From positions 868,001-932,000 of the forward strand of contig NW_026705173.1 of assembly GCF_029867415.1 (NCBI RefSeq): 64,000 nucleotides of DNA, read 5' to 3'. Of the stretch, positions 10,477 to 59,232 are shown in pieces; positions within the stretch are counted from its first letter, which is position 1, and the number at the start of each line of letters is the position of its first letter. Source of the stretch: Vicia villosa. Its lineage: Eukaryota > Streptophyta > Magnoliopsida > Fabales > Fabaceae. The notes beneath the pieces were generated by a model. The model was not told the origin of the DNA. It did not search any database and saw only the letters and a program-made list of their open reading frames with translations. Both the position numbers and the translations under genes were made by a program.

Positions 10477-12298
10477 TGTAACACCCCAAATCTACCCGGT
10501 AATTATAATAAAAATCAGAGTATAAATTGCAAACAACATTCATTTGAGGTATCACATATTCGTCATTCAAAAACAATTATGGCTTAATTGCCTTCATATA
10601 GATACATAGCGCGTAACTTAAAACGGACAATTAAATCATTATTAAAAAATCACTTTGTTTCAAATTAAATAGTTAACTCGCAGCGGAATCATCAAACTTC
10701 ATAAATATTCTAATCAAATCGTAGCATCATTGCACAATAACTTTAAGTTACAATTTAAAACATAATTCACTTAAAAATTCAGCAAACAAATTAATAAATA
10801 AAACAACCGCTTTATCCCCCCGAGTGCTAGGTATCAGAGCAAGACACCAACTCGATTAACAGCAATTAAAGACTTCATAAAATCACTTCAAATTTCCATC
10901 GCTATCTTGAGTACCTGTCAATTTCCCATGGTAGGGAAACATCATTCAGAAAGGGTGAGATATCTACCAATATAAACAAACGCATGATAAACAATATATT
11001 AGAATTTAATCATACGAAATTATCACGTTACAGCTTTCAGACTACATTTATAATAACAATTAACCTGAACAGTTATAATTAACAAAAATCAATAACGACA
11101 ACATATTAATAGTTATAACAACTATTTCTCATCTTCCAGACAATACTTGTCACAACACGTCATTAGTATAACAATTTATAATTACAACTCCACATTATCA
11201 CAATTTAACAACAACTCAAGTCACATCACAATTAAATCACACTCATGCCACATACAATGAGACTCTACAACTGCACATGCATGTGGTACCCAGGGCTTCA
11301 GCCCCCATCGCCAATTGCCAGTTAAACAGAGGCATCAAGGCATAAGCCTTCGTCACTAAATTGCCAATCTAGGCCGTCGCCAAAAATGCATATGTATATG
11401 AATGCAACAAACACACACAACAAACAAAATCATCGTCACAAGGCATAAGCCTATATCGTCGCTATACTAATAAATAGAGGTATACATCGTCACTGAAACA
11501 TCCTTCAACTTCGCATAAAACAACAACAATTATCACCACAACAACAACTAATTTCATCGAATCAACACAACAGAATCACAACAACTAATCAGGAATAATT
11601 TCCTACGAATTTAACCCCCACATATCATTCATCATGAGTCCGGTTATAGAGTAAGAACCCCACCCCTTACCTTGTATTCGGAGTCCATTCTACAATTCTA
11701 CCGATCGAAGCCATCTAGCCTTAGCTCCCAAACATTGCCTCTTTTCATCCGAATAAAAAGTTGAAAATTTTCCTTAATTTGCAGCTACAGTGCGATGATG
11801 ATATCTCACAACTCAGACCTTATTTTGAAGATCCCAACGGTCAAAAGTTAGATATAGGTGTTGCGAACCTACCCACAAAATTTGGTGACGATCCAACGGT
11901 TAACGAATCGGGGATCTTCGATTTAGTGAGACTGCTGCAAGAAAAACGGGAATGAATTTCTCTCCTATTTTCTCTCTTCTCTACAACTTCCCATAACAAA
12001 TTCCCCAAGACTTTTTCTCTTCTAATTAGCCTAATCCTTATCTTAACCTAATTTCATTAAATCTATTGGGCCTAACATTCACACCCCACCTTTTACTACC
12101 ACCATCACTTAATTAAGTCCATATAATAAATCTAGTATTTCTTCAATACTATTTCTACAACTTAATCAATTAATTAATCGACTAATTAATCATAAAAACC
12201 CATGTCAACAATTCTCAACACTCCACAAATTCAATAATTAAATTCGAAATAATTTGAATGTATATAATTAAATAATTAACTAAATACCGGGTGTTACA
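10477..12298 (-). repeat. 3' LTR of the 10477-15032 element
   Basis: On the minus strand it starts TGTAACACCCGGTATTTAG and ends GGGTAGATTTGGGGTGTTACA, with TG...CA ends. A 64-codon open frame at 11761-11955 (plus strand) is repeated exactly in the other LTR, so it is LTR sequence and not a gene. Confidence 0.95.
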
Positions 12299-13210: not shown

Positions 13211-15032
13211 TGTAACACCCCAAATCTACCCGGTAATTATAATAAAAATCAGAGTATAAATTGCAAACAACATTCATTTGAGGTATCACATATTCGTCAT
13301 TCAAAAACAATTATGGCTTAATTGCCTTCATATAGATACATAGCGCGTAACTTAAAACGGACAATTAAATCATTATTAAAAAATCACTTTGTTTCAAATT
13401 AAATAGTTAACTCGCAGCGGAATCATCAAACTTCATAAATATTCTAATCAAATCGTAGCATCATTGCACAGTAACTTTAAGTTACAATTTAAAACATAAT
13501 TCACTTAAAAATTCAGCAAACAAATTAATAAATAAAACAACCGCTTTATCCCCCCGAGTGCTACGTATCAGAGCAAGACACCAACTCGATTAACATCAAT
13601 TAAAGACTTCATAAAATCACTTCAAATTTCCATCGCTATCTTGAGTACCTGTCAATTTCCCATGGTAGGGAAACATCATTCAGAAAGGGTGAGATATCTA
13701 CCAATATAAACAAACGCATGATAAACAATATATTAGAATTTAATCATACGAAATTATCACGTTACAGCTTTCAGACTACATTTATAATAACAATTAACCT
13801 GAACAGTTATAATTAACAAAAATCAATAACGACAACATATTAATAGTTATAACAACTATTTCTCATCTTCCAGACAATACTTGTCACAACACGTCATTAG
13901 TATAACAATTTATAATTACAACTCCACATTATCACAATTTAACAACAACTCAAGTCACATCACAATTAAATCACACTCATGCCACATACAATGAGACTCT
14001 ACAACTGCACATGCATGTGGTACCCAGGGCTTCAGCCCCCATCGCCAATTGCCAGTTAAACAGAGGCATCAAGGCATAAGCCTTCGTCACTAATTTGCCA
14101 ATCTAGGCCGTCGCCAAAAATGCATATGTATATGAATGCAACAAACACACACAACAAACAAAATCATCGTCACAAGGCATAAGCCTATATCGTCGCTATA
14201 CTAATAAATAGAGGTATACATCGTCACTGAAACATCCTTCAACTTCGCATAAAACAACAACAATTATCACCACAACAACAACTAATTTCATCGAATCAAC
14301 ACAACAGAATCACAACAACTAATCAGGAATAATTTCCTACGAATTTAACCCCCACATATCATTCATCATGAGTCCGGTTATAGAGTTAGAACCCCACCCC
14401 TTACCTTGTATTCGAAGTCCATTCTACAATTCTACCGATCGAAGCCATCTAGCCTTAGCTCCCAAACATTGCCTCTTTTCATCCGAATAAAAAGTTGAAA
14501 ATTTTCCTTAATTTGCAGCTACAGTGCGATGATGATATCTCACAACTCAGACCTTATTTTGAAGATCCCAACGGTCAAAAGTTAGATATAGGTGTTGCGA
14601 ACCTACCCACAAAATTTGGTGACGATCCAACGGTTAACGAATCGGGGATCTTCGATTTAGTGAGACTGCTGCAAGAAAAACGGGAATGAATTTCTCTCCT
14701 ATTTTCTCTCTTCTCTACAACTTCCCATAACAAATTCCCCAAGACTTTTTCTCTTCTAATTAGCCTAATCCTTATCTTAACCTAATTTCATTAAATCTAT
14801 TGGGCCTAACATTCACACCCCACCTTTTACTACCACCATCACTTAATTAAGTCCATATAATAAATCTAGTATTTCTTCAATACTATTTCTACAACTTAAT
14901 CAATTAATTAATCGACTAATTAATCATAAAAACCCATGTCAACAATTCTCAACACTCCACAAATTCAATAATTAAATTCGAAATAATTTGAATGTATATA
15001 ATTAAATAATTAACTAAATACTGGGTGTTACA
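13211..15032 (-). repeat. 5' LTR of the 10477-15032 element
   Basis: Same length (1822 bp) as the partner at 10477-12298 and almost identical. Differences seen include tgctacg for tgctagg, cacagtaac for cacaataac, and atactggg for ataccggg. It is followed by the second target duplication TTCCT at 15033. Confidence 0.95.
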
Positions 15033-16602
15033 TTCCTTTCACTACAAGGATATGTTTTTATTGTACAAATAATATTGCTGAATATGAAGCTTGCATCATG
15101 GGACTTGATGAAGCCATTAATTTTAGGATTAAGATTCTTGATGTTTATGGATATTCCGCGCTTGTGATTAATCAGATCAATGGAGAATGGGAAACTCGTC
15201 ATCCTGGTTTAATCCCTTACAAAGATTACGCCAGAAGGTTGTTGACATTTTTTAACAAAGTTGAATTCCACCACATCCCTCGAGATGAGAACCAGATGGT
15301 TGATGCTTTAGCCACATTGTCTTCCATGTACAAAGTGAATTTCCATAATGAGGAACCTCGGATTACAATCAGGCGTCTTGATAGACCTGACCATGTGTTT
15401 GCAGTTGAGAAATCAGTAGATGAGAAAACTTTGAGGATATTGCCAGGCAGTTTCTTCATCAATGCGGATGTTTTATACAAAAAAGAAATGACATGGTTTT
15501 GCTCAGATGTGTGGATAGACACGAAGCAAACATGTTGATGCATGAAATTCATGAAGGTTCTTTTGGTACTCATGGCAATGGATATTCGATGGCTAAGAAG
15601 ATGCTTAAAGCAGGTTACTATTAGTTGACAATGGAATCTGATTTCTACAAATTTGTAAAGAAGTGTCACAAGTGTCAAGTATATGCTGACAAGATTCATG
15701 TGCCTCCGACACTTCTCAATGTTATATCATCTCCATGGCCTTTCTCTATGTGGGATATTGATATTATTGGCATGATTGAACCCAAGGCTTCGAATGGACA
15801 TCGATTCATCCTGGTAGCAATTGATTATTTTACCAAATGGGTGGAAGCTGCTTCATATGCTAGTGTAACAAGGCAAGTTGTGGTCAGATTTATCAAGAAC
15901 AATATCATCTGCCGATATGGTGTGCCATGTAAGATCATTACTGATAACGGCTCGAATCTGAATAACAGCATGATGAGAGAACTATGTGAAAGCTTCAAGA
16001 TTGAACATCACAATTCTTCGCCTTATAGGCCAAAGATGAATGGAGTTGTTATAACAGCAAATAAGAATATTAAAAAGATTGTTCAAAAGATGGTTGTTAC
16101 GTACAAGGACTGGCATGAGATGCTCTCATTTGCTCTGCATGGGTACCGTACATTTGTTCCTACTTCAACCGGGGCAACTCCCTTTACTTTGGTCTATGGT
16201 ATGAAAGCAGTGCTCCCCATTGAGGTTGAGATTCCATTATTGAGAGTTTTAATGGAAACCAAGTTATCTGAGGCTGAAATGTGTCAGAGTGGGTTTGATC
16301 AATTGTATTTGATAGAAGAAAAAAGAATGACGGATTTATGCCATGGTCAGCTATACCAGAAAAGAATGAAGAAAGCTTTTGATAAGAAGGTTCGACCTCG
16401 TGTATTCAGAGAAGGCGACCTCGTGCTCAAATGGATCTTGTCTTTCACCTCCGATTCAAGGGGCAAGTGGACTCCTAATTTTGAAGGACCATATGTTGTT
16501 AAGAAAGCCTTCTCTAGCGGTGCATTAATTCTCGCAACTATGGATGGAGAAGAGCTCCCACGTCCCGTGAATGCTGATGTAGTCAAGAAATACTTCGCCT
16601 AA
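15033..16602 (+). pseudogene. Tat element: rest of plant-type RNase H, and integrase
   Basis: Continuation of the pol interrupted at 10476. It begins with the plant-type RNase H segment (NIAEYEACIMGLDEAI, ALVINQINGEWETRH, DENQMVDALATLSSM). Next comes a spacer that is about 30 codons shorter than in the copy at 42650 and carries a frameshift near 15490. The HHCC zinc finger follows, with a stop TAG near 15623, then the integrase core to the stop at 16602. The core shows WDIDIIGMIEPK and IITDNGSNLN (two catalytic Asp). The expected Glu in NGAVEAANKN is replaced: here the text is NGVVITANKN (16051-16053), so the DDE triad is broken. The integrase C-terminal part ends RPVNADVVKKYFA. Confidence 0.92.
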
Positions 16603-16624
16603 AAATTAATAAAATAACATCTCA

Positions 16625-16767
16625 CTAAGTTGAAAACCCAAAAGGGTGACTTAGGCAAAAAGGAGCGTCTCGGTGGACTGAAAACCCAAAAGGGCGGTCC
16701 AGGCAAAAATTAGAGACATAAACAGAATAAAATACCCGGTGGACTGAAAACCCGAAAGGGCGGTCCA
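16625..16767 (+). other. Three tandem stem-loops after the integrase stop
   Basis: Hairpins at 16625-16654, 16674-16701 and 16740-16767 share one plan: a 7-8 bp outer stem, an AAAA bulge on the 5' side, a 3-bp CCC/GGG inner stem, a 4-base loop (AAAA or GAAA), and GGCAAAA after the hairpin. Outer stems are CTAAGTTG/TGACTTAG, TGGACTG/CGGTCCA and TGGACTG/CGGTCCA. The same trio with different, still complementary, stems follows the integrase at 44404. The first hairpin starts 23 bases after the stop codon. The function is unknown; a conserved RNA structure is the natural reading. Confidence 0.75.
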
Positions 16768-17834
16768 GGCAAAAGTTAGGGATTCATGGCAAGTAACTAC
16801 ATCATACAAGACTTGATCATCAGCGGTCATCTGTTTATCATGAGAAGTTCAACACATTTCAACGGAAGCCTTTACTCAGGAATTCAAACTTGAGAGAGAG
16901 GATAGGGTCATTACATTTCAATGTACCTTTTCCATAAAATTACCACTTTCTAAACTTTGTAATCATCCATGGAGTCTTGCCTTTTGCAGGCTACCATCCT
17001 TTTAATAAAGTTTGAGCCTTTACCCATTATTTGCAATCTTATTTCTTTCATATCTCTTAAATATCATTTATTGTTGATAGTAATTTTTGAAACAAAAAGA
17101 AAATTGATTTCAACAAAATCCTTTTTGAAAAATATAAAAGAAGTTTTATTTTGATTCATGAGTATATTATAAGGAATGGATATGTTAATATATTCATGAG
17201 AAAAAGAGGAAGAATGTATTCCAGTTGGTGTACCTCTGGCCTGGTTCGAATATGATGTAGAACTCAGTTATCTTATTCTCTCAACTTCAATGTTTCCTCA
17301 GTGTTGAGTAGCATATAATCCAAAGTCATCAAAAGCTTGTCGTGGCAACCCTCTGCTCATGTTTGTGGATGATACCTCGAGTGCTCAGATAGAGACATGC
17401 TTGATTATGTTGTTTCTTGTACTCTATCTCTTGAGTTAATCCTTGTGCTAAGTTTTGGCAGCATATGCATCATTAACATGCATCAAAAACAGTCATGCAT
17501 TCACATTTGCTATCATGAAGTTTACTGTCAATCAGATTGCTCTTTCATTTAGAGTGTCTTTAGGCAGAAAATACTCACTTTTCTTGAAATCCCCACTGAA
17601 TTTGTTTCTATATGGATAATATGTTTCAGTTATTCTGTTCAAAATTCTTATGAACAGAAATACAGTGAGTTATTCCCTCACTTGATCCTATCTTATTTGG
17701 CAGCTTCTTTCCATTTGGCCATGGATTGAATTTTGGTTGTTGGATGATGTATGTTAAGATTGTGCACTTGTGTTTGCACCCTCAATCTTTGAAAAGAAAA
17801 GCAAAGTATTATTCTAAACTTATAATTTTCTCTT

Positions 17835-18480
17835 CACCGTTAATGGTTAGTCGGTGCATCTCACCTTCAGTGGAACGTTGGTGCATTTTATATCTTCACC
17901 GTCAATGGTACGTCGGTGCATCTCTTCATACCTTCAGTGGAACGTTGGTATATTTTATCGTTAGTGGTACGACGATATATCTTTTTCCTACATCCAGTGG
18001 TACGTTGGTAGCTCACCTTCAGTGGAACGTTGGTGTATCTTGTTATATTTTCATCGTCAATGGTACGTCAATGAATTTCTATTCATACCTTCAGTGGAAC
18101 GTTGGTATATTTTATCATCAATGGTACGATGGTATATGTTTTTCCTACCTCCAGTGGAACGTTGGTATCTCATCTTCAGTGGAACGTTGGTGTATCTTGT
18201 TATATCTTCATCGTCAATGGTACGTCGATGAATTTCTATTCATACCTTCAGTGGAACGTTGGTATATTTTATTGTCAGTGGTACAACGGTATATCTCTTT
18301 TCTACCTCTAGTGGAACTTTGGTAGCATACCTTCAGTGGAACGTTGGTATATTTTATCGTCAGTGGTACGACGGTATATCTCTTTTCTACCTTTAGTGGA
18401 ATGTTGGTGTATATTTTTATCTTCATCGTCAGTGGTACGTCGATGTATTTTTATTCATATCATCAGTGGATCGATGGTGT
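17835..18480 (+). repeat. Degenerate tandem array of 'TCAGTGGAACG' hairpin units
   Basis: About 15 units of roughly 25-60 bp carry a constant core (TTCAGTGGAACGTTGG or GTCAATGGTACGTCGG) bordered by short inverted arms that vary together: CACCG/CGGTG (17835-17856, 17897-17918), ATACC/GGTAT (17928-17951), TATCG/CGATA (17956-17977) and CATCG/CGATG (about 18210-18231). Tandem repeats in the 3' UTR are known for Ogre-type elements and can seed satellites; the paired variation of the arms is what I see here. Confidence 0.85.
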
Positions 18481-27074: not shown

Positions 27075-29357
27075 TGTAACATCCTAAATTCTCTAAGCAT
27101 GAGAATAAGACTAATGAACCTAATGGCAACTAAGAAAGAGAAGTTAGTGAAAATCAAAAGGGATTGATTAGAATCTAACTAAATGGCAAACTAGTAAATA
27201 TATCTTAGTTAGAGGGCAAATTGGTCTTGTTCCAATTAGTGAATAACATAAGGCCTTGTTTGGTTACATATGCCATTCATTTATTTCAAGAAATCAGAAT
27301 TTAGTAATAAGATTGGAGGGAGAGAAAGTGAAGAACATGGACAATGAAGAAGGGATGTCCAAGATTCTTCACCGTCAACATGCATGTGCAAAATACTTAG
27401 AGATATCAAAGTTTGATTTTAAGGATCATGCTTAGTGTGTGTGGATCATCGTCATCTCCATCATCAATTCAGAACTTTTGAACTCAAGGTGAGTTCCATA
27501 GTTAGAACTTGGGGTAGGAATTGGGGTTTTGTGAATTGCAAGTTTGGGAACCAGGATTAGAATGAGAAAATTATTGATGCATGTTGGTATTGATAGGTGT
27601 GTTGATACATGTATATGCTGCTATAGAATGTTGTTACATGTTAGGGTTCGAATTTGGATTGTTGGGGAACCTATGGATGAGTTAGAACACTATTGGAACT
27701 GGTTTTATGCAAGAAAACGTGATTATTGCTTCTGGTTCAGTAAGCAATCGATTGCAGGGGTCAAGCAATTGATTTCACTGTGAAAAATTGACTTTCTGCG
27801 CTTCTCGTTCAGCGAGCAATTGATTGCCCACCAGTGCAAATCGATTGCACCTGACAGAAAATCATCCCTTTACTGTTTCGACCATATCTGGAGTTTCGTA
27901 ACTCAGAATTGGGCGTCGTCGAAGGCATTGGAAAGCTAATGGAAAGGGCTAAGAGATGTCTAAGCTTACACAACCTTAGAATACTATTAAGTACTAATTA
28001 AATCCATGTGAATATTCTTGTATCGTGGTTACTAAACGATAGTGCTTGGATAATCGTTTTGTTAATCATTCTAAATGCCTTGGTGCATAAATCTTCCTTC
28101 AACTGGGTTGTAGGGATCATGGAATGAGTGGTAATGTAAATCAAAGTTATCCACGTACACTAAAGACGTTGAGGTCTTATAGCTTGTGAAGCTAGGCATG
28201 TGAACCAAGAGGCGAGGGGGTCTTACAACTTGGTGTAACTTGTGTACGTCGATTAACAAAATATGGATATGGTAAGTTGAGCCTTAGGATACCTAAACTA
28301 AGATTTATGAACATATTCTAGCCTGATATTTCCTCTTTCCTATCAAGCGACTTCTTCTGAAATTCTACAATCTAATGGTGTAGTAAGTATGTGACGAGGG
28401 GTTAGAGGACATACAAAAGGACAGTAACTGCGAGTAGGCACGTTACATATATGTTGGCTACTTCTTGTGAAGAAATTCCAAGGATGCCCTTGTGCCATAT
28501 ATATTGCAGGCATTCTCGGGCTTTGGTCTCGGAAATGGGTCGATTCCTTAGTTCACGAGTTATTCTTCGGGGATGAAGTCCCGGGGATGTGTACCTCACC
28601 TTATCATTTTGTTGTTTCCTTATGGATGAATTTCTATGTGAGATTTGGACCCAGGAAATTGGACGAGTTGAATTGTTGTAGCGATTCAATGTCGGTTCCA
28701 TGGTTCTCTATAATCATATGAGTTACTTACCATGTAGATTTAAAAGGAGTGTTTTGGGGTCTTGTTTCGAGGGCAGATAGGCAGGTAAACCCGGAAGACC
28801 AGACCTTGAGGGTAGCTCCAGACAGAAGCTTATCAGGTAAATCGGAATACCTATTCTGGAGGAAACATGTACCTAATATTTGAACATGTGATATGTTCTC
28901 ATTGGATCCAATTGGGTGGTCAGTGGATACTCAGTCGTGGTGCTACGAGTTGATAGGCTTTCCTGTACTGGATACTGAGGAAACCTTAGGATCTGAGATG
29001 GATCTGTAAATTATGTATGTACCTTGTAGAGCCGAGAGGACCCATAAGATAGGGGAACTCACTGAGATTGATTAATCTCACCCCATTCATCTTATTATTT
29101 TTCAGGTACCGTGAAAGATCGAGTTTTGCTAGATGCTTGGATAAGGAGCTTTTGATCGGATGTCGTGAAGACCGTGCCTAATCTTTTCTTCCGTTGTGTA
29201 TTAATATCTTTGTGTAGATATATTCATTGTATCCATCTTCAAGATGATTTTGAAATGTACACACTTATGTTATTATTCCTGACTTTTGTATGTACTCAGT
29301 ACCAGTTATTAGTATTCTGCTGATATGATTCTAGACACATATTGGTAGGGTATTACA
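27075..29357 (+). repeat. 5' LTR of the 27075 element
   Basis: TG...CA ends. Contains palindromes of the GTGCAAATCGATTGCAC type at 27743, 27816 and 27834. ATACT (27070-27074) would be the left target duplication; its partner lies outside the window. No clear tRNA-complementary PBS follows 29357. Confidence 0.88.
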
Positions 29358-31891: not shown

Positions 31892-33838
31892 TGTAACATC
31901 CTAAATTCTCTAAGCATGAGAATAAGACTAATGAACCTAATGGCAACTAAGAAAGAGAAGTTAGTGGAAATCAAAAGGGATTGATTAGAATCTAACTAAA
32001 TGGCAAACTAGTAAATATATCTTAGTTAAAAGGCAAATTAGTCTTGTTCCAATTAGTGAATAACATAAGGCCTTGTTTGGTTACATATGACTTTCATTTA
32101 TTTCAAGAAATCAGAATTAAGTAATAAGATTGGAGGGAGAGAAAGTGAAGAACATGGACAATGAAGAAGGGATATCCAAGATTCTTCACCATCAACATGC
32201 ATGTGCAAGATACTTAGAGATATCAAAGTTTGATTTCAAGGATCATGCTTAGTGTGTGTGGATCATCGTTATCTCCATCATCAATTCAGAATTTTTGTAC
32301 TCAAGGTGAGTTCCATAGTTAGAACTTGGGGTAGGAATTGGGGTTTTGTGAATTGCATGTTTGGGAACCAGGATTAGAATGAGAAAATTGTTGATGCATG
32401 TTGGTATTGATAGGTGTGTTGATACATGTATATGCTGCTATAGAATGTTGTTACATGTTAGGGTTCGAATTTGGATTGTTGGGGAACCTATGGATGAGTT
32501 AGAACACTATTGGAACTGGTTTTATGCAAGAAAAACGTGATTTTTGCTTCTGGTTCAGTAAGCAATCAATTGCAGGGGTCAAGCAATTGATTGCACTGTG
32601 AAAAATTTACTTTCTGCGCTTCTGGTTCAGCGAGCATTCGATTGCACACCAGTGCAAATCGATTGCACCTGACAGAAAATCATCCCTTTACTGTTTCGAC
32701 CATAACTGGAGTTTTGTAACTCAGAATTGGGCGCCGTCGAAGGAATTGGAAAGCTAATGGAAAGGGCTACGAGATGTTTAAGCTTCCACAACCTTAGAAT
32801 ACTATTAAGTACTAATTAAATCCATGTGAATATTCTTGTATCGTGGATACTTAACGATAGTGCTTGGATAATCGTTTTGTTAATCATTCTAAATGCCTTG
32901 GTGCATAAATCTTCCTTCAACTGGGTTGTAGGGATCATGGAATGAGTGGTAATGTAAATCAAAGTTATCCACATACACTAAAGACGTTGAGGTCTTATAG
33001 CTTGTGAAGCTAAGCATGTGAACCAAGAGGCGAGGAGGTCTTACAACTTGGTGTAACTTGTGTACGTCGATTAACAAAAATGGATATGGTAATCTGAGCC
33101 TTAGGATACCTAAACTAAGATATATGAACATATTCTAGCCTGACATTCCCTCTTTTCTATCAAGCGACTTCTTCTGAAATTCTACAATCTAATGGTGTAG
33201 TAAGTATGTGACGAGAGGTTAGAGGACATACAAAAGGACAATAACTACGAGTAGGCACGTTACATATATGTTGGCTACTTCTTGTGAAGAAATTCCAAGG
33301 ATGCCCCTGTGCCACCTATATTGCAGGCATTCTCGGGCTTTGGTCTCAGGAATGGGTCGACTCCTTAGTTCAGGAGTTATTCTTCGGGGATGAACTCCCG
33401 GGGATGTGTACCTCACCTTCTCCTTTTGTTGTTTCCTTATGGATGAATTTCTATGTGAGATTTGGACCCAGGAAATTGGACGAGTTGAATCGTTGTAGCG
33501 ATTCAATGTCGGTTCCATGGTTCTCTATAGTCATATAAGTTACTTACCATGTAGATTGAAAAGGTATGTTTTGGGGTCTTTTTTCGAGGGCAGATAGGCA
33601 GGTAAACCCGGAAGGCCAGACCTTGAGGTTAGCTCCCGACAGAAGGTTGGCAGGTAAATCCAGAAGACCTATTCTGGAGGAAACATGTACCTAATATTTG
33701 AACATGTGATATGTTCTCAGTGGATCCAATCGTGGTGCTACGAGTTGATAGGCTTTCTTGTACTGGATAGTGAGGAAACCTTAGGATCTGAGATGGATCT
33801 GTAAATTATGTATGTACCTTGTAGAGTCGAGAGGACCC
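31892..33838 (+). repeat. Partial 3' LTR of the 27075 element
   Basis: Matches 27075-29043 throughout and is cut at GAGAGGACCC by the Ogre LTR. The missing 314 or so bases should lie beyond the far end of that Ogre insertion. Confidence 0.9.
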
Positions 33839-44404: not shown

Positions 44405-44424
44405 ATAAATAAAGGAACAGCTCG

Positions 44425-44572
44425 CTAAGTTGAAAACTCGCAAAGAGCAACTTAGGCAAAAAAGAGCGTCTCGGTGAATCGAAAACCCGAAAGGGCGATT
44501 CAGGCAAAAGTTAGAGACATAAAAAATAATAATCAATCCCGGTAGACTTAAAACCTGAAAGGGGTAGTTTAC
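44425..44572 (+). other. Three tandem stem-loops after integrase (second copy)
   Basis: Hairpins at 44425-44455 (CTAAGTTG/CAACTTAG, inner CTC/GAG), 44475-44502 (TGAATCG/CGATTCA, inner CCC/GGG, GAAA loop) and 44542-44572 (GTAGACT/AGTTTAC with one G-T pair, inner CCT/GGG, GAAA loop). Each is followed by GCAAAA. The plan matches 16625-16767, but the stem sequences differ by paired changes. Confidence 0.78.
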
Positions 44573-45605
44573 GCAAAAGTTAGGGATAAATGGCAAGTAA
44601 CTGTGTTCAGGACAAACTTGATCATTCGAAATCCATAGCGGAGTGTTCATCATCAGTAGGTCATCTTTTACGAAGCACGCATGCAGCGCAATTCAGAGTG
44701 GAAGGGAAAGATAACGGTCGTCACGTTTCATCGTAGCTCTTTTCCTAAAAAATTACCAATTTCCAACTTTGTAAATACTCCATGGGATCAAGCATTTGGC
44801 TGGTTACCATTCCATAAATAATAATTTGAGTCTTGTGCCTTTTCTTTGCAATCGAGTCTTATTCAGTTTCTTAAAATGCGTTTTATGTTTAAACAATCAT
44901 TTTCTTGAAACAAAATGTTTTCATAAAATAAAATTAATTTACTTGCAAAAATAAAGGTGAAATTTCTTTCTAAGGTTTACATACAATAGGAAGAATGCAA
45001 ACAGTTGCTCCGAAAACGGTTGAGACTCCGGGAACCCAGATTTCCCCCATGAGATCGCTTTGCGAACATCTCCCGATGACGGATCTTCACTTCAAGTCAT
45101 ATCACTCACTTCAAAACAGCGGGCAACTGATTACCAGATATCCCCAACAAAGTGCAAAGTACAAATTGCAAGAAGAAGACATCTTCTGATCGTCCCAAGA
45201 TTCAAGTCGTATCATAGGATTTCACATCCGCGAAAATTCTATTCACATTCACTTTACGTTTTATAATTTTCATGCATACATCACATCATAATTGCATAGT
45301 TAGCATAGTTAGTGCCCAAGTCACAGAGACGTGTACCCGAGTTTCCCCTGCGAGTCGTGGAGGAACTTTCTTCTTCAAGACGACGGTTCATACACAAGGA
45401 TCTCCCCGAGCAAGTCGACGAATGGCAATCTCGTTTAAAGAGATAGTTTGTTCACTTTTGGAGTTCCCCACCCGAGATTCTCCCGTAGAGCGACACTCGA
45501 TAAGATAGTTTGTTTCGCATTTGCTTTCCTCACAGAGTCGTTGGATATCCCCAGCGGAGTCAATGGATGACAGTCTTCATCAGGAAAATAACTTTGATTC
45601 CCCGG

Positions 45606-49012: not shown

Positions 49013-51847
49013 TGTGGTGTCGTTTTTTTTACCTCCCCGTTTCACTTGGGAGGACGGCACGCTAGACCCTTCACGCGAAATTTGGAAGGAGAATGCGCCC
49101 GGGGCGGGATGAATTTTGTTTCAGTTCTTCCTACGATATCACACGAACTTTTTAATTTTCCTAACGAGTAGTAGAGGGGAAAAAGATCTCAAATTAACCC
49201 TAGGAGTTTGCTACGTGTGGGGATTTCACCTAGAATAGAAATTATGGAGTTCGGGGGGTCGGTTATACATAGGGAAGAGTTTAAGCACCCTACATATCAG
49301 TAGTACTCTACAGGAACCTTCTCTGTGTCATTGTGATTGTGTTTATTGCTAATGATTGGGAAAGTTTCTCCTTTGTGTTAGGAGAGAGAATTGAATTGAT
49401 TTAAAAAGACAGACAGGCAGACAAACAAACTGACTATTTTTGGTATTTTATTAGCTCGCTGAGATTCCTTGTGAACCTCATGCCTACATATCCCTAATGG
49501 AAGTCAGAGCTTAATGTAGTTCGGGGAACTAACTAGGGAAATTAATTATTTTTGGTGTCTTGCTTGAAGCTCAAGGTTGAAGCTTTGAATTAAATCTCTG
49601 TTTACAGTAAAGAGACATGAAGTCATCTTCATAGAGAGGTATTTCTACTATTCCACCACAAACATTAAAAGAGTGAAAAAATAACTGAATTCATTTCATT
49701 CAAGATGGGGACCTTACTTGTGTATGTGCAAGTATACCGGTCAATTGTGTCTTGAATGAAAGAAAGATGCTCGTCCAAATTAGGGAAAGTTAATCACATG
49801 TCTGGGTTTTACTGCCTGCTCATGCCTTTCAAAATCCTAAATGGGAGACTTGATTAAAATTAAAATGAAATGTAATGTTTGTTTGTATGGATGTGGTAGA
49901 GTAGTAAAAATATATCTCTATAGAGATAAGCTATATGTATCTATTGTATAAAAGATTTTACTTTAGCTGGCTTGCATGAGGCCCAAGCTTGAGGCTTTTG
50001 ATTGTTTTTATTGACTCTGGGAGATAACTCTACTGGGGGTTAATTTACAGGGAATTTGTGTTCTGTACGAAGCCCAGAATTGAGGCTGACTCTAGTTGGA
50101 GAGTGTTTATTTGATGGATTTTATTTGGTATTCTGTACAAAGCCCATAATTGTGGCTGGCTCTACTTAGGGAGACTCTATTTGTGTGCCTTGTACAAATC
50201 CCAAGGTTGTGGCTGACTGCTGAGGATAACTGAGTTTTTTAAGACTATGGATGACTCTATTTTGTGTGCCTTGTACAAAGCCCAAGGTTGTGGCTGACTC
50301 TTAACTGTGAAAGTTATTTAATTTGTGCCTTGTATGAAGCCCAAGGTTGTGGCTACTCTAGCTAGGGGAAAGATTATTTTTTGCCTTGTACAAAGCCCAC
50401 GGTTGTGGCGGACTCTTAAAGAAACTGATTACGGAAGACTCTATGGGGAAAAGATCCTTGAGATTAGGAATCTTTGACACAGGGAAATATGGTTTATCTG
50501 CCTTGTACAAAGCCCAAGGTTGTGGCTACTAAAAATGAAGGACTCACTGGGGGAGTTTTATTCTGCTAGAGGTTTTAACAAACTAATTTATTTTTTTATG
50601 TTCTTTGGAAGCTAACCCTTTCCAGGGATTTTGACTCAGCTGGAGAAATTGTCTATTAAAAGACTGGATTTTTGGAGGCTAACCCTTTCCAGGGGTTTTT
50701 ACTCTATTGGGGAATTTATCTCTTAAAGGAATGAAACTTTGTTAAAATGATAGAATGATTTGGAGGCTGACCCTTTCCAGGGATTTTTGTTAAAATGAAG
50801 GAATGTGTGGAGGCTAACCCTTTCCAAGGATTTTTGTTAAAATGAAAGAATGTGTGGAGGCTAACCCTTTCCAGTGGTTTTGACTCTTTTGGGGAATTTA
50901 TCTCTTAAAGGAATGAATCTTTGTTAAAATGATAGAATGATTTGGAGGCTGACCCTTTCTAGGGATTTTTGTTAAAATGAAGGAATGTGTGGAGGTTAAC
51001 CCTTCCGAGGGGTTTTTGTTAAAATGAAAGAATGTGTGGAGGCTAACCCTTTCTAGGGGTTTTGTGTTAAAAAAGAGAATGGCAGAAAGATTATCTAGTG
51101 GAGACTTCTTGTTTTAAAGCCCAAGATTAAGGCTGACTCTGACTGAGAATAAACAAACATAGATCCTAGAATCTGCTAAGGAAGATTGATGAAGATAAGG
51201 GTGACAGAGACTGTCCATGTCTCTCATTCCAAAAAGTGTACTCAATATGAGATTGAGACAATCTTAGCTTGTTTAAAGTCTGGTTTAAAGAATGGAAGAA
51301 ACTCACCAGGATAGGCTAAAAGGTAACTAAAGACTTGTTCCTATGTTTATAAGAAACTTGATGGGTCCTTGTATACAAGCTCAAGAGGAAGCTGGAAATG
51401 CTTTTAAGAAGCCTGTGGGTCCTTGTACAAAGCCCAAGAGGAGGCTAATTGAGGGTCATCGAGGGTCCTTGTTATAGCACAAGAGAAAGCTATGTGGTTT
51501 TGAACTTATTTTGGCTTTAAGCAAATGGGTAAGAGGTTTCACCGGGAATAATTCCTCTTTGGGTGGATGTGTCCTATTTTGGGTTCTAAGGCTTTTGCCA
51601 AGATGTGTCACCGGGAATAATTCATCTTGGGGGTTTGAACTACAGATCTCTAATTAGGAAAGAGCCTTCACCGGGAAGACATTCTCAATCCTAGGCCATA
51701 TTCCTATAATATATATATAGTTTAATTGTCCAGTTTACACTCAAACGTAGTTCTAAACAATATATATAAACAGTTCTATATTTGACAGTAATTTAAATAA
51801 AGACTGTAAATTGAAAGCTTGTAAAGCCTAACCTGGATGGAGTGGAG
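49013..51847 (-). repeat. 3' LTR remnant (last 2.8 kb)
   Basis: Matches 59233 to about 61890 and the last part of the LTR at 33839-40146, ending AACGACACCACA at 49013. It contains the hairpin and CCCTGGAAAGGG arrays, the latter with extra units relative to 60830-61100. The 5' boundary at 51847 is the deletion point (GATGGAGTGGAG then ACATCTC). Confidence 0.9.
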
Positions 51848-52150
51848 ACATCTCATAAGACCAAGCGAAGACATCTGAGAATTCTCTAAGCAGCTGTATC
51901 AAATTCTCTCTGATCTCTTAACTGAGTGAAGCTCCAATCTTAACCTCTTTTCTGTTTCCATCGGAACCAAGGTTAATGATCTCTAGAGGCTCATTGTATG
52001 GCTGAATGGCCTCTTCCTTTTGTTGAAGTAACCGTGAAATTTCCTTTGATATTTCTTAGTCTTCTTCTTCCTCTGCCCCGAACACAGGAAACCCAAAGCT
52101 TGGAGAAGTCATACGGTCGCACGTTTCAACGGGGTATTTTATGATTAATC
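51848..52150 (-). pseudogene. Start of RT exon, truncated
   Basis: About 100 codons with the acidic segment FPVFGAEEEED, NEPLEIINLGSDGNRKEVKI and the pre-RT motif LIQLLREFSDVFAWSYEM, then the deletion join at 51847. Stops at about 52059 and 51920. It matches the relic at 2879-2570. Confidence 0.85.
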
Positions 52151-52474
52151 TGCATATGTGTGATAAGTTTTATTTAGAAAACGGGGGAAGACTCGGTGTA
52201 TGCAGTTAATGGAATTATTGATGTTTTTAAGGGTGTTTTTTAGGATTACCAATTTCCGAAAAAAGAAAAGGAAAAACTAACGAAGGAAGAAAATGACATT
52301 TTTATTTATCAACAGTCATTTCTTGAAACAAAGACCCTATAAAACAAAACTCTATTGCTTTGGGCGAAGCAAAAAGGGACATTTTCCTAAGAAATAGTAA
52401 AATGCAAAGCCCTATAAAACATCTCTTCACCCTGGGCTATGGTGAGAGGACAAAATAACGGTGAAAGTTCCTAC
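52150..52474 (-). other. Candidate Ogre PRO-RT intron (GT...AG)
   Basis: Minus strand: donor AAGTAGGAA at 52474, acceptor ATATGCAG at 52150, 325 bp. Removing it joins the linker to the RT exon in the same frame and skips the TAG that otherwise ends the linker. The counterpart at 3224-2880 has the same phase. Splicing between PRO and RT is known for Ogre elements; these exact sites are predicted from the sequence only. Confidence 0.6.
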
Positions 52475-55400
52475 TTAGGAGTACGAACAACAGTTGAAAC
52501 TTCAACAACTGTCCAATAGTGGCGAACCCCATTGTGCACTAAGTAATCTGGCACCTTAGGCTTAAGCTGGCCTGTGGTAGGTCTTGATTTACCAACCACT
52601 GTCTTTGCTACACTCAGACGGTCTTCTTCTACTTCAGCAGACTGAGCGGTGTGAGCACACCCATTTCCAAGTAGAGTATGTCGGTTTTTCTTTTGAGGAA
52701 ACTTCCAATCTTCTGAATGGAGAGACTCGTTGTCGGAGACACTTTCGAGGTCATCCTCTTCTGTATTTTGGTCTTGCTCTTCTCCCAAGATGGCATTGAC
52801 TAGGTATGTGAACTCTAGATCCGTAGCCTCGGAAGGTGACTTGGGGATATAATCCTCAATGATGATTTCACCAGATGCTGATGATGAATAGCGAGGGTTA
52901 TACATCTCTTTTGGCTGAGAGAGGTACTCGTAATTAAAGTTCCATCCAGTTGGAACAATGTCTTCAAGAGAGATTTTTGAACTTCCAGGAGCGGAGTATT
53001 TCACCATGTAGTCGAATTTTCCGCTTGGTTATCCTAATGTATCCTAAGTCTCTTCGGAGATAGGGGGAACTTCTTCTGATGAACCATGACTTCTGGTGGT
53101 GAAGCTGTTAGTAACTTCATCACTACTTGGTTGAGTCTTACTTTCAGATCCTTTAGTCGGATAACAGCAAGGTGAATCAGACTCTAATAAGGTTATGTAT
53201 CCTGCCTCGAGAAGATAGGACATATATTCCACTTCAAAATTCTCATCGGGGTCTTCCGTACCGATGGTATTGACCGTTTGTTGAACAGGTTGAAGACAAC
53301 CTCCACTGCGGAAAGTTTCTTGAATTGGGAGAACTACCTCAATTCCTGGAATAGCTTTTGATGATGTTGGAAAGAATCCAACTCCTGTTCTTTTCTTGTT
53401 GTTGGTAGGAATATCAATGTGCCCCCAACCACTGGTAGTGCCATCCTTTACAACTTGGATTGCATCTTTGTAGGAAGAAATAGACGCTACTTTCTCCTTT
53501 CCTTTTTCCTTGTCCAAGGAAAGTGCTTGGAATTTAGTTCCAGTGACTTCTTTTGGTTCTATGTCGGAGAATGATGACAGGTTACTGACGATCAAAGCTC
53601 GTTCTCCACAGACGGTTACCAATTTGTCATTTCTTATGAACTTCAGTTTCTGATGAAGTGTTGAAGTAATTGCCCCAGCCTCATGAATCCATGGGCGACC
53701 TAGCAAACAACTGTATTGTGCCGGGATATCCAAAACTTGGAAAGTGATCTTGAACGTCTGAGGTCCAATAGTTATGGGAAGATCTACTTCTCCAAAAACT
53801 GACTTTCTTGATCCATCAAATGCTTTGACGATGACGTGACTGTCCCTCAATGGGTAATCTTTGAAGGATAATCTTGACAATGTTGATTTAGGCATGACGT
53901 TGAGAGAGGATCCATTGTCTATTAGGACTCCTGTGAGTACATCACCCATGCAGCTAACTGAGATGTGAAGTGGAAGATTATGGTCCACTCCTTCTTCAGG
54001 AAGATCTTCGTCACAGAAACTCATACTAGCTCATGCGGAGATGTTGCCAATGATACTGTTGAATTGTCCTACAGTAACACTTGGTTCTACGAAAGCTTGT
54101 TCCAAAACTTTCTATAGAGCTTCTCTATGAGCTTCAGAACTCAATAGTAGGGAGAGAACAGATATCCTAGATGGAGTATGTAGTAGCTGGTCTACAATGT
54201 TGTATTCACTCCTCTTGATTAACTTCAAGATTTCATCATTTTCTTTCGCTTGAACAGCATTGGTTGGATTATTGTCTTGCCTATGTGGTGCTTCTTCTGA
54301 AGGCTTTTCCATATTTTCTGTTGCTCTGTTGAAGACTCGTCCACTTCTGGTGACTCGACTAACGTCAGCAATGTTGACAACAGATGGTAATGGTATCTCC
54401 TTACCATTTTCAATGAATGTAGCGTTGTACTTGTATGGTATAGCCTTGTCAGACTCATACGGTACAGGACCTGGTAAGTAAATGACTAATGGAGCAGTTG
54501 ATGTCTTCCTGCTGTCATACTTGACTTGCATAGGTTCAACTTGATTAATTTGAAGAGATACGGTAAAAACTTTGTCATCTTCTCTGTTGGCAAGAACTGT
54601 AATGGTATTTTCATCCATCAGTTTCTGAATGTCGTTGCGAACATGCAAACATCCTCGTGAATTTCTTCGACAAATTCTGCATCTACTGTTAGGATGGAAA
54701 TCCGTTCCAAAGTAGGCAAGTCCATTTAAAGTCTTATGAAACCTGACTACCGATCCTTCGAGATCTTCAACTTTGTAGATTTTGTATTCTCCTGGACATC
54801 CTTGAACCATGTTGATGTCGTGCTCAGTTTTGACTCGAATCTATTGAATCCATCCTAAGTCCATTTGTTCTTGTAATGCAGCTTGAACTACGGCACATCC
54901 TTGATTATTCTTTGGACAAATTTCACACGTGAAGTAGTTGTGAGGTGGTACGTGGCCATATCCAGCTTTTCTAGCGTGCATTCTGACGAGATTTTCCCCT
55001 ATCTGGCGAATGTCATAGATTTGAATGACATTGGGGTGCTGATCTATCAGATTCACTGAAGCCTCTTTATGCTGCGGCAAAGGATTTGCTTGGACGTTAG
55101 GATTAGTACATTTGAAGGATAACATTCCATTCTTCACTAATCTTTGAACGTCGGCCTTGAAACTAAAACATCTCTCAATGTTGTGACCTGGTGCCCCTTG
55201 ATGATAGGGACAAGATTGATCAACCTTGAACTAAGATGATGATTCGTTTACAGGATTTGAAGGGCTCTTTGTCTGAATGAGTCCTTTCGCCAGTAGTGTT
55301 GGGAATAAATCCGCACATGGCATTGGTATGGGATCGAAGGCAGGATACCTTGGAATCCGATTGTTGTTGAAATTTGGTGGTCGAACCTGCTGCTGAGGTT

Positions 55401-56694
55401 GTTGCGCCCTTTGTTGAAATGGTTGTTGCGAAACCTGAGGTTGATAAGTTGGCGCTGAGTTAACAACCGGAGTTACTGTAGCAACCTGAGGTGAAAACCT
55501 CTTCTTTGCTTTGTGCAAGACATTGTTGACATCTTGATCCTTTTTCTTCTGGAAAGAACTTTCATACTTCCTAGGACCAATAGAAGATTATGGTTCTTTG
55601 TTCAGGCGTCCTTCTCGAACTGCTTCTTCTAAACGTACACCCATGTTTACCATCTCGGTAAAGTCACTTGGTGCACTTGCAACCATTCGTCCGTAGTAAA
55701 ATGGACTCAAGGTTTTGAGATAAATTTTTGTCATTTCTTTCACTTCAAGTGGTGGACAAATTTGAGCAGCAACTTCACGCCATCTCTGAGCGTATTCCTT
55801 GAAGCTTTCTTTATCCTTTTGAGTCATGGCCCGGAGTTGATCTCTGTCGGGAGCCATATCCAGATTATACTTATACTGTTTGACGAAGGCCTCTCCGAGG
55901 TCTCGAAAAGTACGAATCTCTGAACTGTCCAAGTTCATGTACCATTTGAGTGTAGCACCAGTCAGGCTGTCTTGAAAATAATGAATGAGCAATTGTTGAT
56001 TATCAGTATGAGTTGACATTCTTCGAGCGTACATCACGAGATGACTTTGTGGGCATGAATTCCCTTTGTACTTTTCGAACTCTGGTACTTTGAATTTGTG
56101 AGGAATCTTAACATTTGGAACCAGACAGAGGTCTGCAGCATTCTTTCCAAATAGATTTTGTCCTCGGAGAGTCTTGAGTTCCTTTTGCATTTGCAGAAAC
56201 TGTTCTTGGAACTCTTCCAATCTCTCATACACGCCAGCGTCCTCACTTGGAGCGTGATGATATACTTGTCCACCCGGTGGAGGAAAAGTATGCATAATCA
56301 GTCGTGGAGAAGCCATGATAGCAGATCTTGGTATCTCAGCATTCTGTTGTGTGAAACCCATTGCCGTTGCTCTTGGAACTTCAATTTCCAGAGGTTTGTA
56401 ACCCTCTGGTGGACGCATCTCCGTTGTAGCTCTCGGAACTTCAGAAGCTGGAGGTATGTACCCTTCTGGAGTAAAGTTATACGGCATGCCCCAAGGTCGG
56501 TCGGGCGGCATGGTATACTGAGGAATAGGAGTAGAAACAATCTCGGAAACCACAGTCCTTTGCGGTTCTTCTGGCGTTGGTTGATTCTGCGCAACTACCA
56601 GGGCTTCTACCATACTATTGAGCCTTTCGACAATACCCTTACGAGTATTAATCTCTTCTCTGAGTTCTTCATTCTCTTGCTCAAAGTTTTCCAT
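52475..56694 (-). pseudogene. Ogre gag-protease polyprotein, one frame with nonsense codons
   Basis: Starts MENFEQENEELREEINTRKG at 56694. Domains in order: coiled-coil and proline-rich N-terminus; gag core (FEKYKGNSCPQSHLVMYARR, LTGATLKWYMNLDSSEI, QRWREVAAQICPPLEVKEM); a Gln/Pro-rich stretch (about 55500-55330); zinc knuckle CPYHQGAPGHNIERC (about 55210-55165); two further Cys-rich modules with CEICPKNNQGC and CRICRRNSRGC; retroviral-type aspartic protease with VLIDNGSSLNVMP and LLGRPWIHEAGAI (54024-53500); acidic linker to 52475. All open pieces are in the same frame. It is broken only by stop codons at 55588, about 55229, 54841, 54112, about 54033, 53044 and about 53025; no frameshift was seen. 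Confidence 0.9.
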
Positions 56695-56982
56695 TCTTTT
56701 CTTGCGACTTGAACGAGTGTTGTATGGATGAGACAGCTTAAAAGTCTTTGTTCACCTCCTTCTCCTCCTCTCTTTCAGGAGAAAGGAAAGTGACTACTAG
56801 ATCCGCAACAATTCTCGTGTCAGTGCGTACAACTAAAGCGATGCATGATGTGTAATTAAGATTATTTTTCAAGGAAACACCATAATTACGTTATGAAACA
56901 TCAAACATTTATTAATTAAGCGAAAAATGCCGTTTTTACACACTTTGAAAAAGGGAATACAGAGAAACTGAGAGAAAGGACT

Positions 56983-58470
56983 CTAAAACTTTGACGATGA
57001 GCCAACTTCACGTTCTAACATTTTCTTTTGTTTCTTGAGCTGAGCGTTCTCTGACATGAGCTGATCGATGATCCAGGAAGCAGGAGGGATATGATGAGAA
57101 AGTGATGATTGTGTCACTTGTCGATCGAGTACTTCAAGTAACTCATCCTTCTTTCTTAGGATGTTCTGAATTTCAACATTTTCCGTGATGACAATTCGAT
57201 ACTTGTTTCTCCAAGCATTCCTTTCTTGGCATACCTTGTTTAATGCTGCTCGCAGTTTTTCAACATTGGTGGAGAAAAGGTAAATTGGTTCCCTTACGGG
57301 AATAGGTTCTTGATGCTGATATGGCATCCTGAGCTTGAATGCTCTGATGCGTACCCATTGAAGTTAAGGATCCAGGGAGATACAAAGATGTTTTCCTAAC
57401 AATCTTTTCCCTTTTGTGTGAAGAAGACGCCAGGCTTGGACAATTTCCTTCTTCAGCATGTTACCATGATCGTCGATGTTCTTGAAGAACAGACCCTCCA
57501 ATTGAATACTACTTGGAATGTTTTTCATAGGATAGCCGTATTGACGACGGGATAAAGCTGGATTATAGCTGATTCCTCCCTTAGTTCCAATAAGGGGTAT
57601 GCTGGGATAACTTCCACAACTGAAGATGATCTTGGTTTCGTCATTGTCAGGACTACACCAATCAATGTCTGTATGAGTGAGAGACATGATTTTCTGTGAC
57701 CAGTAAAGGCCATCCCTCATGTTCCAGAAAGTGCTAGACTTTGGCAGGCGTGATATGAACCATTCGTATAGCAACAGTGTGCAGCATGTGATTAATCCTC
57801 CACGCTGCAGGTTTCTTGAATGCACAGAGTGATAAGCATCCGCAAGGAAGGTTGGAACTGGATTTCCAATTAAGAAGATCTTAATTGCGTTGATGTCGAC
57901 GAAATCGTTAATGTTAGGAGACAAAAACAATCCGTAGATAAGCAAAGCCAAGATTTCTTCAAATGCGCTCATATCTTGGATGCTGACGAAGTACCGAGCT
58001 TGATCTAACAAGAACTTAGAAGGCAATCCTCGAATTCCTCCTCTACTCACCATATGAGTTCTGATGTCGACTACATTCAAAGGAGTAGTTGCAGCAATTA
58101 TAATATCGTCAGGATTCTTTTCCAAACTGGAGTACGGATCTTGCACGTACACGGGTATTTCAATCAGACGAGAGTACTCCTCCAACATAGGCATGAGTTG
58201 ATAATCTTGAAAGGTAAAGCAGTGATACTTTGGATCGTAAAACTGCACCAATGTGGGAAGGATCCCATCCACAATGTTAGTGCTAAGAAGAGGTAGAAGT
58301 TTTCCATACTTCTCCTTGAAAGCCTGGGGGTTGACCACCAGTTTTCCGAGCTTTTCCAATTCCTCAACCTTAGGAATTTTGAAGGTGCATTTCCTAGTTC
58401 TCTTTCTTCCATAATCCATGGTATAGATCCTTAAGTCCTTTCTCCGTTTCTCTCTTTCTATGAAGTTCAA
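56983..58470 (-). pseudogene. Ogre ORF1 protein, one nonsense codon
   Basis: Counterpart of 40913-42391: 368 codons, a TAA at about 57366-57364 where the intact copy has TAC, then the remaining part in the same frame to the stop at 56983. The C-terminal coiled-coil part has three or so extra residues (KKQKKML) relative to the intact copy. The TAC-to-TAA change is the only disabling change found. Confidence 0.88.
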
Positions 58471-58616
58471 AACGTTCGTTATTTAGTTTCCTTGAAAAAC
58501 GACTCGAAAAAGACTCTTTTTTTTTGTTTTAATTATTATGAATGAATAATGCATGAATGCTTGAATGCAAACACAAGAGTTTTTAAACAAACATGGCGTA
58601 GAAGGGTATAGTGGTC

Positions 58617-59226: not shown

Positions 59227-59232
59227 TTTTTC

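What the first reader, a model, noticed from the sequence alone, without database searches (positions are those of the whole stretch)
16625..16767. Conserved trio of covarying stem-loops directly after the integrase stop codon
Two diverged Tat/Ogre elements (16625-16767 and 44425-44572) carry three consecutive hairpins of identical design: 7-8 bp stem, AAAA bulge on one side, 3-bp inner stem, GAAA/AAAA loop, then GGCAAAA. Stem sequences differ between the elements in a paired way. TGGACTG/CGGTCCA versus TGAATCG/CGATTCA contains two full double changes plus a G-T to G-C change. The inner stem CCC/GGG versus CTC/GAG changes in both strands. The first stem goes from two G-T pairs to Watson-Crick pairs. 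This points to an RNA structure kept by selection, perhaps for packaging, dimerisation, export or 3' end function. I know of no description of it.
Basis: partly seen in the sequence, partly recalled or inferred. Interest (0 to 1): 0.82.

Follow-up and report, generated by a model that had tools for sequence, protein, structure and literature searches.

The report
Tandem RNA hairpins in Ogre retrotransposons
Just after the integrase gene, the Ogre-type jumping genes of this plant genome carry a row of small folded RNA hairpins whose paired letters change together in evolution, so the RNA shape itself seems kept by selection and probably helps the element's RNA get copied into new places.

Summary
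Hairpins lie at 16625-16767 and, with a damaged third, at 44425-44572. The window's 2.03-Gb genome holds 14,418 copies of the core (up to 3 mismatches; reversed control 0). Of 100 integrase ends sampled without reference to hairpins, 60 have the exact core downstream and the other 40, all read, carry at least one hairpin. In those 40, parsed on landmarks alone, 98.4% of stem cells pair, with 92 G-U against 2 A-C, so the sense RNA is what is selected. On an integrase tree, changes within lineages kept pairing 35:3, on single-copy branches 53:36. A family of at least 30 copies, integrase dead in all 16 examined, keeps three modules more conserved than their flanks. That argues for a cis-acting genomic-RNA element rather than one serving the integrase stop. 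My choice is export of intron-containing RNA (0.4), then packaging (0.3). No Rfam match; no description found in the open-access papers searched. Only this one genome was compared.

The parts
15625..16602 (+). Integrase ORF of element A (rve domain); stop TAA at 16600-16602, 18 nt before P1 of the first module
   Evidence: Pfam rve E 5.8e-14; sequence
16621..16665 (+). Module 1 (type A) of element A: P1 CTC 16621-16623 / GAG 16663-16665; P2 CTAAGTTG/TGACTTAG 16625-16654; AAAA bulge; P3 CCC/GGG; loop AAAA; 3' side of the internal loop GCAAAAAG
   Evidence: P1 here is 3 bp, weaker than in most copies; model R1 did not report it, probably because it overlaps module 2 by one base
16667..16717 (+). 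Module 2 (type B) of element A: P1 GTCTC 16667-16671 / GAGAC 16713-16717; P2 TGGACTG/CGGTCCA 16674-16701; loop AAAA
   Evidence: model R1 70.2 bits
16735..16781 (+). Module 3 (type B) of element A: P1 CCC 16735-16737 / GGG 16779-16781; P2 TGGACTG/CGGTCCA 16740-16767; loop GAAA
   Evidence: model R1 73 bits
43502..44404 (+). Integrase ORF of element B (rve domain)
   Evidence: Pfam rve E 4.4e-13
44420..44467 (+). Module 1 (type A) of element B: P1 GCTC/GAGC; P2 CTAAGTTG/CAACTTAG; P3 CTC/GAG; loop GCAAA
   Evidence: not reported by model R1, probably for overlap with module 2
44468..44518 (+). Module 2 (type B) of element B: P1 GTCTC/GAGAC; P2 TGAATCG/CGATTCA; P3 CCC/GGG; loop GAAA
   Evidence: model R1 71.6 bits
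44536..44587 (+). Module 3 (type B) of element B: P1 ATCCC/GGGAT; P2 TAGACT/AGTTTA with a T.T mismatch and an extra G near the inner stem
   Evidence: model R1 61.2 bits
40913..42391 (+). DUF7745 ORF 0.4 kb upstream of the RNase H/integrase ORFs of element B. No room for gag, protease and RT lies between, so element B is internally deleted or a joint of two copies
   Evidence: Pfam PF24924 E 3.2e-124; ORF coordinates; homology break near 42.65 kb

Best explanation
Shown by sequence comparison: directly behind the integrase stop, the sense RNA of this genome's Ogre-type elements carries one to three modules of one design (some lineages have extra variant stem-loops): P1 (3-5 bp), an asymmetric internal loop (one or two bases, mostly G, on the 5' side; GGCAAAA plus a few bases on the 3' side), P2 (7-8 bp), an AAAA bulge, P3 (3 bp) and a mostly GAAA or GCAAA loop. 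Modules 1 and 2 abut without a gap. Pairing is maintained while the sequence changes. Inferred: the modules are a tandem protein-binding platform, in which the stems hold nearly invariant A-rich bulge, loop and internal loop in place, acting in cis on the full-length genomic RNA. The step I think most likely is escape of the unspliced, intron-containing RNA from the nucleus, as the constitutive transport element of simple retroviruses and the RNA transport element of mouse IAP elements do, also from the 3' part of their RNA. Pea Ogre RNA is reported as partially spliced (a paper title only, seen in a reference list), yet a copy that keeps its intron must be reverse transcribed from unspliced RNA. 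The export step itself is untested.
For: Structure and selection; 28 module types, chosen with a pairing-aware parser: 99.3% paired, 8 of 10 pairs with double changes, slid registers 22-53%; landmark-only parse, 244 modules in 103 of 121 sequences: WC 2088, GU 296, AC 9, other 47; part of these loci were found with patterns that fix stem letters, so repeats it on the 40 loci found by integrase end only: 92 modules, WC 813, GU 92, AC 2, other 13; 30 elements aligned without structure; RNAalifold finds 42 of my 44 pairs; 98.2% paired against 25-49% when slid; 35:3 kept:broken inside lineages against 53:36 on single-copy branches, Fisher p 2.6e-4; GU:AC 16:1 inside lineages. Ubiquity: 100 of 100 integrase ends. 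Cis role: 16 of 16 examined copies of a family of at least 30 have stops in every frame of the 400 nt upstream, five stop triplets in all 16, and three recognisable modules; modules 2-3 have 22 of 121 variable columns against 275 of 712 in the flanks, p 8e-6. Export analogy: IAP deletion derivatives keep an RTE near the 3' LTR (passages of PMC2674570); an Ogre family with an intron in POL (passage of PMC2533021).
Against: No function was measured. No match to any Rfam family. The intron was not tested in these elements. Packaging fits the same data almost as well. The dead-integrase family was not shown to have moved by retrotransposition; its copies are dispersed on several chromosomes and contigs and share the lesions. 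By strict landmarks only 8 of its 16 copies have all three modules undamaged (7 have two, 1 has one). Stem sequences are themselves quite constrained (only 11 copies with a pyrimidine at the fourth P2 position), so sequence-specific recognition may also matter. The count of further pair types is not above shuffles (498 of 500 and 499 of 500 reach it).
Confidence: 0.4

Rival explanations
1. Packaging or dimerisation signal: the modules are bound by Gag and select the genomic RNA for the virus-like particle.
For: Kept in a dead-integrase family, which would have to be packaged in trans. [quoted passage not shown] Repeated hairpins with invariant loops are typical of Gag targets (recalled).
Against: [quoted passage not shown] Model R1 reported no further convincing module in the window (3 weak matches, E 0.28-0.73), but it also failed to report the two known module-1 copies, so this is not a firm absence. 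GAAA loops are not self-complementary, so a kissing-loop dimer is unlikely.
Confidence: 0.3
2. Shield against nonsense-mediated decay: the modules protect the RNA because a long 3' region follows the integrase stop.
For: Position directly after the stop, like the Rous sarcoma virus stability element after gag (abstract of PMC5580461); structured recoding elements downstream of a stop stabilised a plant reporter (abstract of PMC6277124); tandem-repeat 3' regions are common in Ogre and other Tat elements (passages of PMC7004042).
Against: The dead-integrase family keeps the modules although no integrase frame is left to terminate there. In the same plant study a stable hairpin forming in the unstructured region just after the stop abolished protection. 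The length of the 3' region was not measured here.
Confidence: 0.13
3. Site for reverse transcription or recombination: the structures pause the enzyme or guide template switches, which could also seed the tandem repeats further downstream.
For: Tandem repeats lie about 1.3 kb downstream in element A (17858-18425). Published idea that such repeats arise by strand transfer between co-packaged copies (passage of PMC7004042).
Against: Would not by itself require nearly invariant A-rich loops; in element A the repeats do not start at the modules.
Confidence: 0.07
4. No function: inherited inverted repeats or chance.
For: Many copies are recent relatives, so raw counts overstate independence.
Against: Double changes on internal branches (12 kept, 1 broken), GU:AC asymmetry, register controls, excess conservation over flanks in a family without integrase.
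Confidence: 0.02

Closest known systems
RNA transport element (RTE) of mouse IAP LTR elements
   Same: Near the 3' end of an LTR retrotransposon and kept in gag-pol deletion derivatives (passages of PMC2674570); multi-hairpin (recalled)
   Different: No Rfam match of the window to any family (whether Rfam holds the RTE was not checked); the Ogre modules are tandem copies of one design right after the integrase stop; binding to an export adaptor untested
Constitutive transport element (CTE) of Mason-Pfizer monkey virus
   Same: 3' location and repeated internal-loop motifs (recalled); serves export of unspliced genomic RNA (abstract start of PMC4829213 in a search listing)
   Different: One long hairpin with two internal loops, other loop sequences (recalled); no Rfam match of the window to any family
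[quoted passage not shown]
   Same: Immediately downstream of a stop codon with a long 3' region (abstract of PMC5580461)
   Different: About 400 nt after gag; the Ogre modules persist where the reading frame is dead
Conserved non-coding motifs of Sireviruses (Ty1/copia)
   Same: Conserved non-coding signals in an otherwise diverged plant retrotransposon genus (abstract and outline of PMC2829016)
   Different: Those are multiple polypurine tracts, an inverted repeat at the PPT/3'LTR junction and LTR repeat boxes, not covarying RNA modules behind integrase
Hypervariable tandem repeats of Tat/Ogre 3' UTRs
   Same: Same part of the same element group (passages of PMC7004042)
   Different: Those vary in sequence and monomer length and gave rise to satellites; the modules are conserved and short, and in element A lie upstream of such repeats

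Membership tests
Ogre lineage (Ty3/gypsy, Tat) | Integrase core domain in the ORF that ends just before the hairpins | tested here: met
   rve in both elements; shared with many other retroelements, so not diagnostic
Ogre lineage (Ty3/gypsy, Tat) | Extra ORF upstream of gag | tested here: inconclusive
   DUF7745 ORF lies upstream of gag in the minus-strand copy (57364-58470 and 55588-56694) and 0.4 kb upstream of RNase H/integrase of element B, where gag to RT are missing; not tested for element A
Ogre lineage (Ty3/gypsy, Tat) | Intron within the polyprotein region | not tested
   Reported for an Ogre family in PMC2533021 (passage); no transcript data here
Ogre lineage (Ty3/gypsy, Tat) | Primer binding site for tRNA-Arg | not tested
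   Named for Ogre families in PMC2533021 (passage)
Any curated RNA family (Rfam 15) | Match to a covariance model | tested here: not met
   0 matches in the whole window at gathering scores; 0 up to E 1 for 16560-16900
CTE/RTE export elements | Position in the 3' part of the retroelement RNA, outside coding sequence | tested here: met
   Behind the integrase stop in 28 of 28 and 100 of 100 loci
CTE/RTE export elements | Binds NXF1 or an adaptor and exports unspliced RNA | not testable with these tools
   -
NMD stability elements (RSE type) | Lies directly after a used stop codon | tested here: inconclusive
   True behind integrase ends (100 of 100); the dead-integrase family keeps the modules without such a frame
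Packaging signals | Binds Gag and is required in cis for encapsidation | not testable with these tools
   Retention in a dead-integrase family is compatible

The most novel reading that the evidence does not exclude
A previously undescribed cis-acting RNA element of plant LTR retrotransposons: a tandem array of one covarying module behind integrase, present in more than ten thousand copies in one genome, that decides which RNA is exported or packaged and that defective elements keep in order to use the machinery of intact ones.
Probability: 0.6. Interest if true: 0.82.

Novelty: new variant of a known kind. Interest (0 to 1): 0.72.

Why it matters
Ogre and related Tat elements make up much of several large plant genomes (recalled), yet I found no paper that names their cis-acting RNA signals. 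The ten paper searches are (two were about animal analogues), in an open-access library only; the Gene papers by Macas and Neumann on Ogre structure appeared only in reference lists. A defined module with internal controls (stems that can be broken and re-paired, different numbers of modules per lineage, a family without an integrase) makes the question of how a giant plant retrotransposon chooses its genomic RNA directly testable. It is also a ready marker for integrase ends of this group, and could become an RNA family entry.

Tried and rejected
Viral contigs (3 patterns; the first was off by one base) and bacterial/archaeal contigs held no match, so no other plant could be compared.

Selecting variants by an odd fourth stem base gave 11 places, mostly copies with a broken pair, not compensated lineages. 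Selecting an odd middle base of the inner stem gave 181 places (control 1); of the 100 listed most read CTC with GGG (wobble or decay), and those with CTC and GAG are nearly all the dead-integrase family (the element B lineage also has CTC/GAG, but with a five-base loop that this pattern does not match). Both sets are biased, so the tree test was repeated without the selected pairs (30:2 against 42:28, p 3.6e-4) and on the sample plus window alone (13:0 against 17:7, p 0.038). The and patterns also fix both sides of the inner stem and part of P2 in one module per locus; therefore the pair count was repeated on the 40 loci found by integrase end only.

The first landmark parse for the tree lost ATCCTGG modules; one search replaces it. 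An early parser missed most 4-base loops. Model R1 does not report module 1 in the window, probably because of a one-base overlap with module 2.

I considered reading the minus-strand copy at 49-62 kb, which lacks RT, integrase and modules, as a mobile derivative without modules. Its junction runs from RT into the inside of an LTR-like repeat, which looks like a later deletion, so I do not use it either way. The search for its junction did not complete.

Full report
What was checked. The two stretches were read directly and scanned on both strands with a strict descriptor. The stem comparisons in the finding are correct. Sense-strand RNA of 16603-16785 and 44405-44590 folds better than shuffles (z -3.35, -3.93); the antisense strand of the first does not stand out (z -1.49).

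The elements. Both hairpin sets follow an integrase ORF with an rve domain. A DUF7745 ORF lies 0.4 kb upstream of the RNase H and integrase ORFs of element B; gag, protease and RT do not fit between, so this copy is internally deleted or a joint of two. In the minus-strand copy at 49-62 kb the same domain precedes gag. An ORF upstream of GAG and an intron in POL are given as Ogre features in a passage of PMC2533021. The Ogre assignment of elements A and B is therefore likely but not proven here. The window lies in a genome of 2.03 Gb.

Ubiquity. The core pattern (bulge, inner stem, loop, 3' half of P2 and GGCAAAA) occurs 14,418 times within 3 mismatches, its reversed control 0 times. To avoid choosing by hairpin, I searched for the integrase terminus with its stop codon: 10,248 places, control 51. 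Of the first 100 listed, 60 have the exact core 60-250 nt downstream on the same strand (20 of these 60 were also fetched). The other 40 were all fetched and read, and 40 of 40 carry at least one module right behind the stop: by reading, 34 have three modules (a parser found three in 33 of them and missed one near the edge of L102), one has lost part of module 2 by a deletion (L119), and five belong to a lineage with a longer A-rich first stem-loop followed by one or two modules (L082, L085, L091, L105, L118). All 28 loci taken from the list have an integrase end within 200 nt upstream. Another lineage (L024) has two further stem-loops followed by GGCAAAA before two standard modules.

Architecture. 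For type-B modules P1 pairs in 798 of 850 cells at the true register and in 18-53% of cells one to three positions off (the parser asks for a pyrimidine-rich 5' strand, nothing of the 3' strand). RNAalifold on 30 elements aligned without any structure returns 42 of my 44 pairs, P1, P2 and P3 of all three modules. GGCAAAA is therefore the long side of an asymmetric internal loop. Loops are GAAA (213), GCAAA (43), AAAA (9) and four rarer forms (8) among 273 parsed modules; the parser admits only A-rich loops of four or five bases.

Covariation and selection. With 28 module types, picked by a parser that looks at pairing and so biased, 99.3% of cells pair and 8 of 10 pairs show double changes. 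With landmarks only (A bulge, loop, GCAAAA; no pairing asked), 244 modules from 103 sequences give 2088 Watson-Crick, 296 G-U, 9 A-C and 47 other cells; 18 of 121 sequences were left out because no integrase stop matched. Some of these loci were found with patterns that fix stem letters, so I repeated the count on the 40 loci found by integrase end only: 92 modules, 813 Watson-Crick, 92 G-U, 2 A-C, 13 other, 98.4% paired; P2 alone 98.3%. G-U and A-C are equally close to Watson-Crick by one transition, so the excess of G-U marks the sense RNA as the selected strand. On the 30-element alignment 98.2% of cells pair (shuffled mean 96.4%, 0 of 500 reach it; slid 25-49%), 7 pairs have double changes (shuffled mean 3.8, 1 of 500 reaches it), while the count of further pair types is not raised (499 of 500 shuffles reach it; 498 of 500). 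On a tree of 60 integrases, changes shared by at least two sequences kept pairing 35 times (12 of them double) and broke it 3 times; changes on single-copy branches, which I take to be mostly decay after insertion, kept it 53 and broke it 36 times (p 2.6e-4). The result holds without the pairs used for ascertainment (30:2 against 42:28, p 3.6e-4) and weakly in the smallest sample (13:0 against 17:7, p 0.038). This is one parsimony reconstruction on one tree.

A family without integrase. L038, L039, L050, L058 and L120-L131 (16 copies, of at least 30 places in the genome) have only a degenerate integrase end. In the four copies compared by tblastn the remnant shows 29-34% identity over 85-124 residues (six copy-query pairs). 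In all 16 copies every reading frame of the 400 nt upstream holds at least one stop; 5 stop triplets are shared by all 16 and 2 more by 14 and 15. All 16 keep three recognisable modules with stem sequences of their own, though by strict landmarks 8 have three undamaged, 7 two and 1 one. Modules 2-3, which played no part in finding the copies, show with their linker 22 of 121 variable columns against 275 of 712 in the flanks (p 8e-6) and 6 against 100 informative columns (p 0.005); mean pairwise identity is 96.9% against 92.55% upstream and 92.2% downstream. In lineages with integrase, the modules are about as conserved as the integrase gene (97-99.6%, module 2 being favoured by the way the copies were found, against 97-98%); the region after them is less conserved in lineage 1 (82-84%), but hardly so in lineage 2 (97.5%, then 94%).

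Reading. That the RNA fold is real and selected I hold at about 0.97. That it acts in cis on the genomic RNA rather than for integrase translation I hold at about 0.7, resting mainly on the dead-integrase family, whose mode of spread is inferred. Within that, I choose export of the intron-containing RNA (0.4), by analogy with the IAP RTE, which deletion derivatives also keep (passages of PMC2674570), over packaging (0.3; [quoted passage not shown] A shield against decay at the integrase stop (0.13) is weakened by the same family and by the plant study in which a hairpin just after the stop abolished protection (abstract of PMC6277124).

Novelty. Rfam holds no match. Ten full-text searches of the open-access library listed no paper that describes it by title or abstract start, and the one for the sequence itself found 0 papers. 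A 2025 study of the related Retand lineage discusses the pol-3'LTR region; the words hairpin, stem-loop and secondary structure do not occur in its main text (find; I read its abstract and first part). Hairpin and secondary structure are also absent from the main text of PMC7004042 on Ogre-derived satellites (find). The Gene papers by Macas and Neumann on Ogre structure were seen only as references, so a mention there cannot be excluded.

Noticed in passing
L082, L085, L091, L105, L118 (also L011, L015): A lineage ending GCATAGA has, instead of module 1, a stem of the type CCTGAT/ATCAGG (one mismatch or wobble in L082) followed by CAAAA, around an A-rich loop of roughly 25-75 nt.
   Followed up: partly
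L024, and partly L021, about 100 nt upstream of the standard modules: Two further stem-loops without the AAAA bulge design (CTAGGT/ACCTAG and CAAACC/GGTTTG in L024), each followed by GGCAAAA.
   Followed up: partly
window 49013-61889, minus strand: Ogre-type copy with DUF7745, gag and protease ORFs in which most of RT, integrase and the modules are missing; the deletion runs from RT into the inside of an LTR-like repeat.
   Followed up: partly
window 10477-12298 and 13211-15032: Direct repeats of 1.8 kb, 99.6% identical, 0.9 kb apart, just before the pol region of element A: looks like a young small LTR element.
   Followed up: no
window 27075-29043 and 31892-33838: Direct repeats of about 2 kb, 95% identical, start to start 4.8 kb: probably another LTR pair.
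   Followed up: no
window 17858-18425: Tandem copies of a 157-bp unit (three in register and a partial fourth) 1.3 kb behind the integrase stop of element A, as in the known hypervariable Ogre 3' regions.
   Followed up: no
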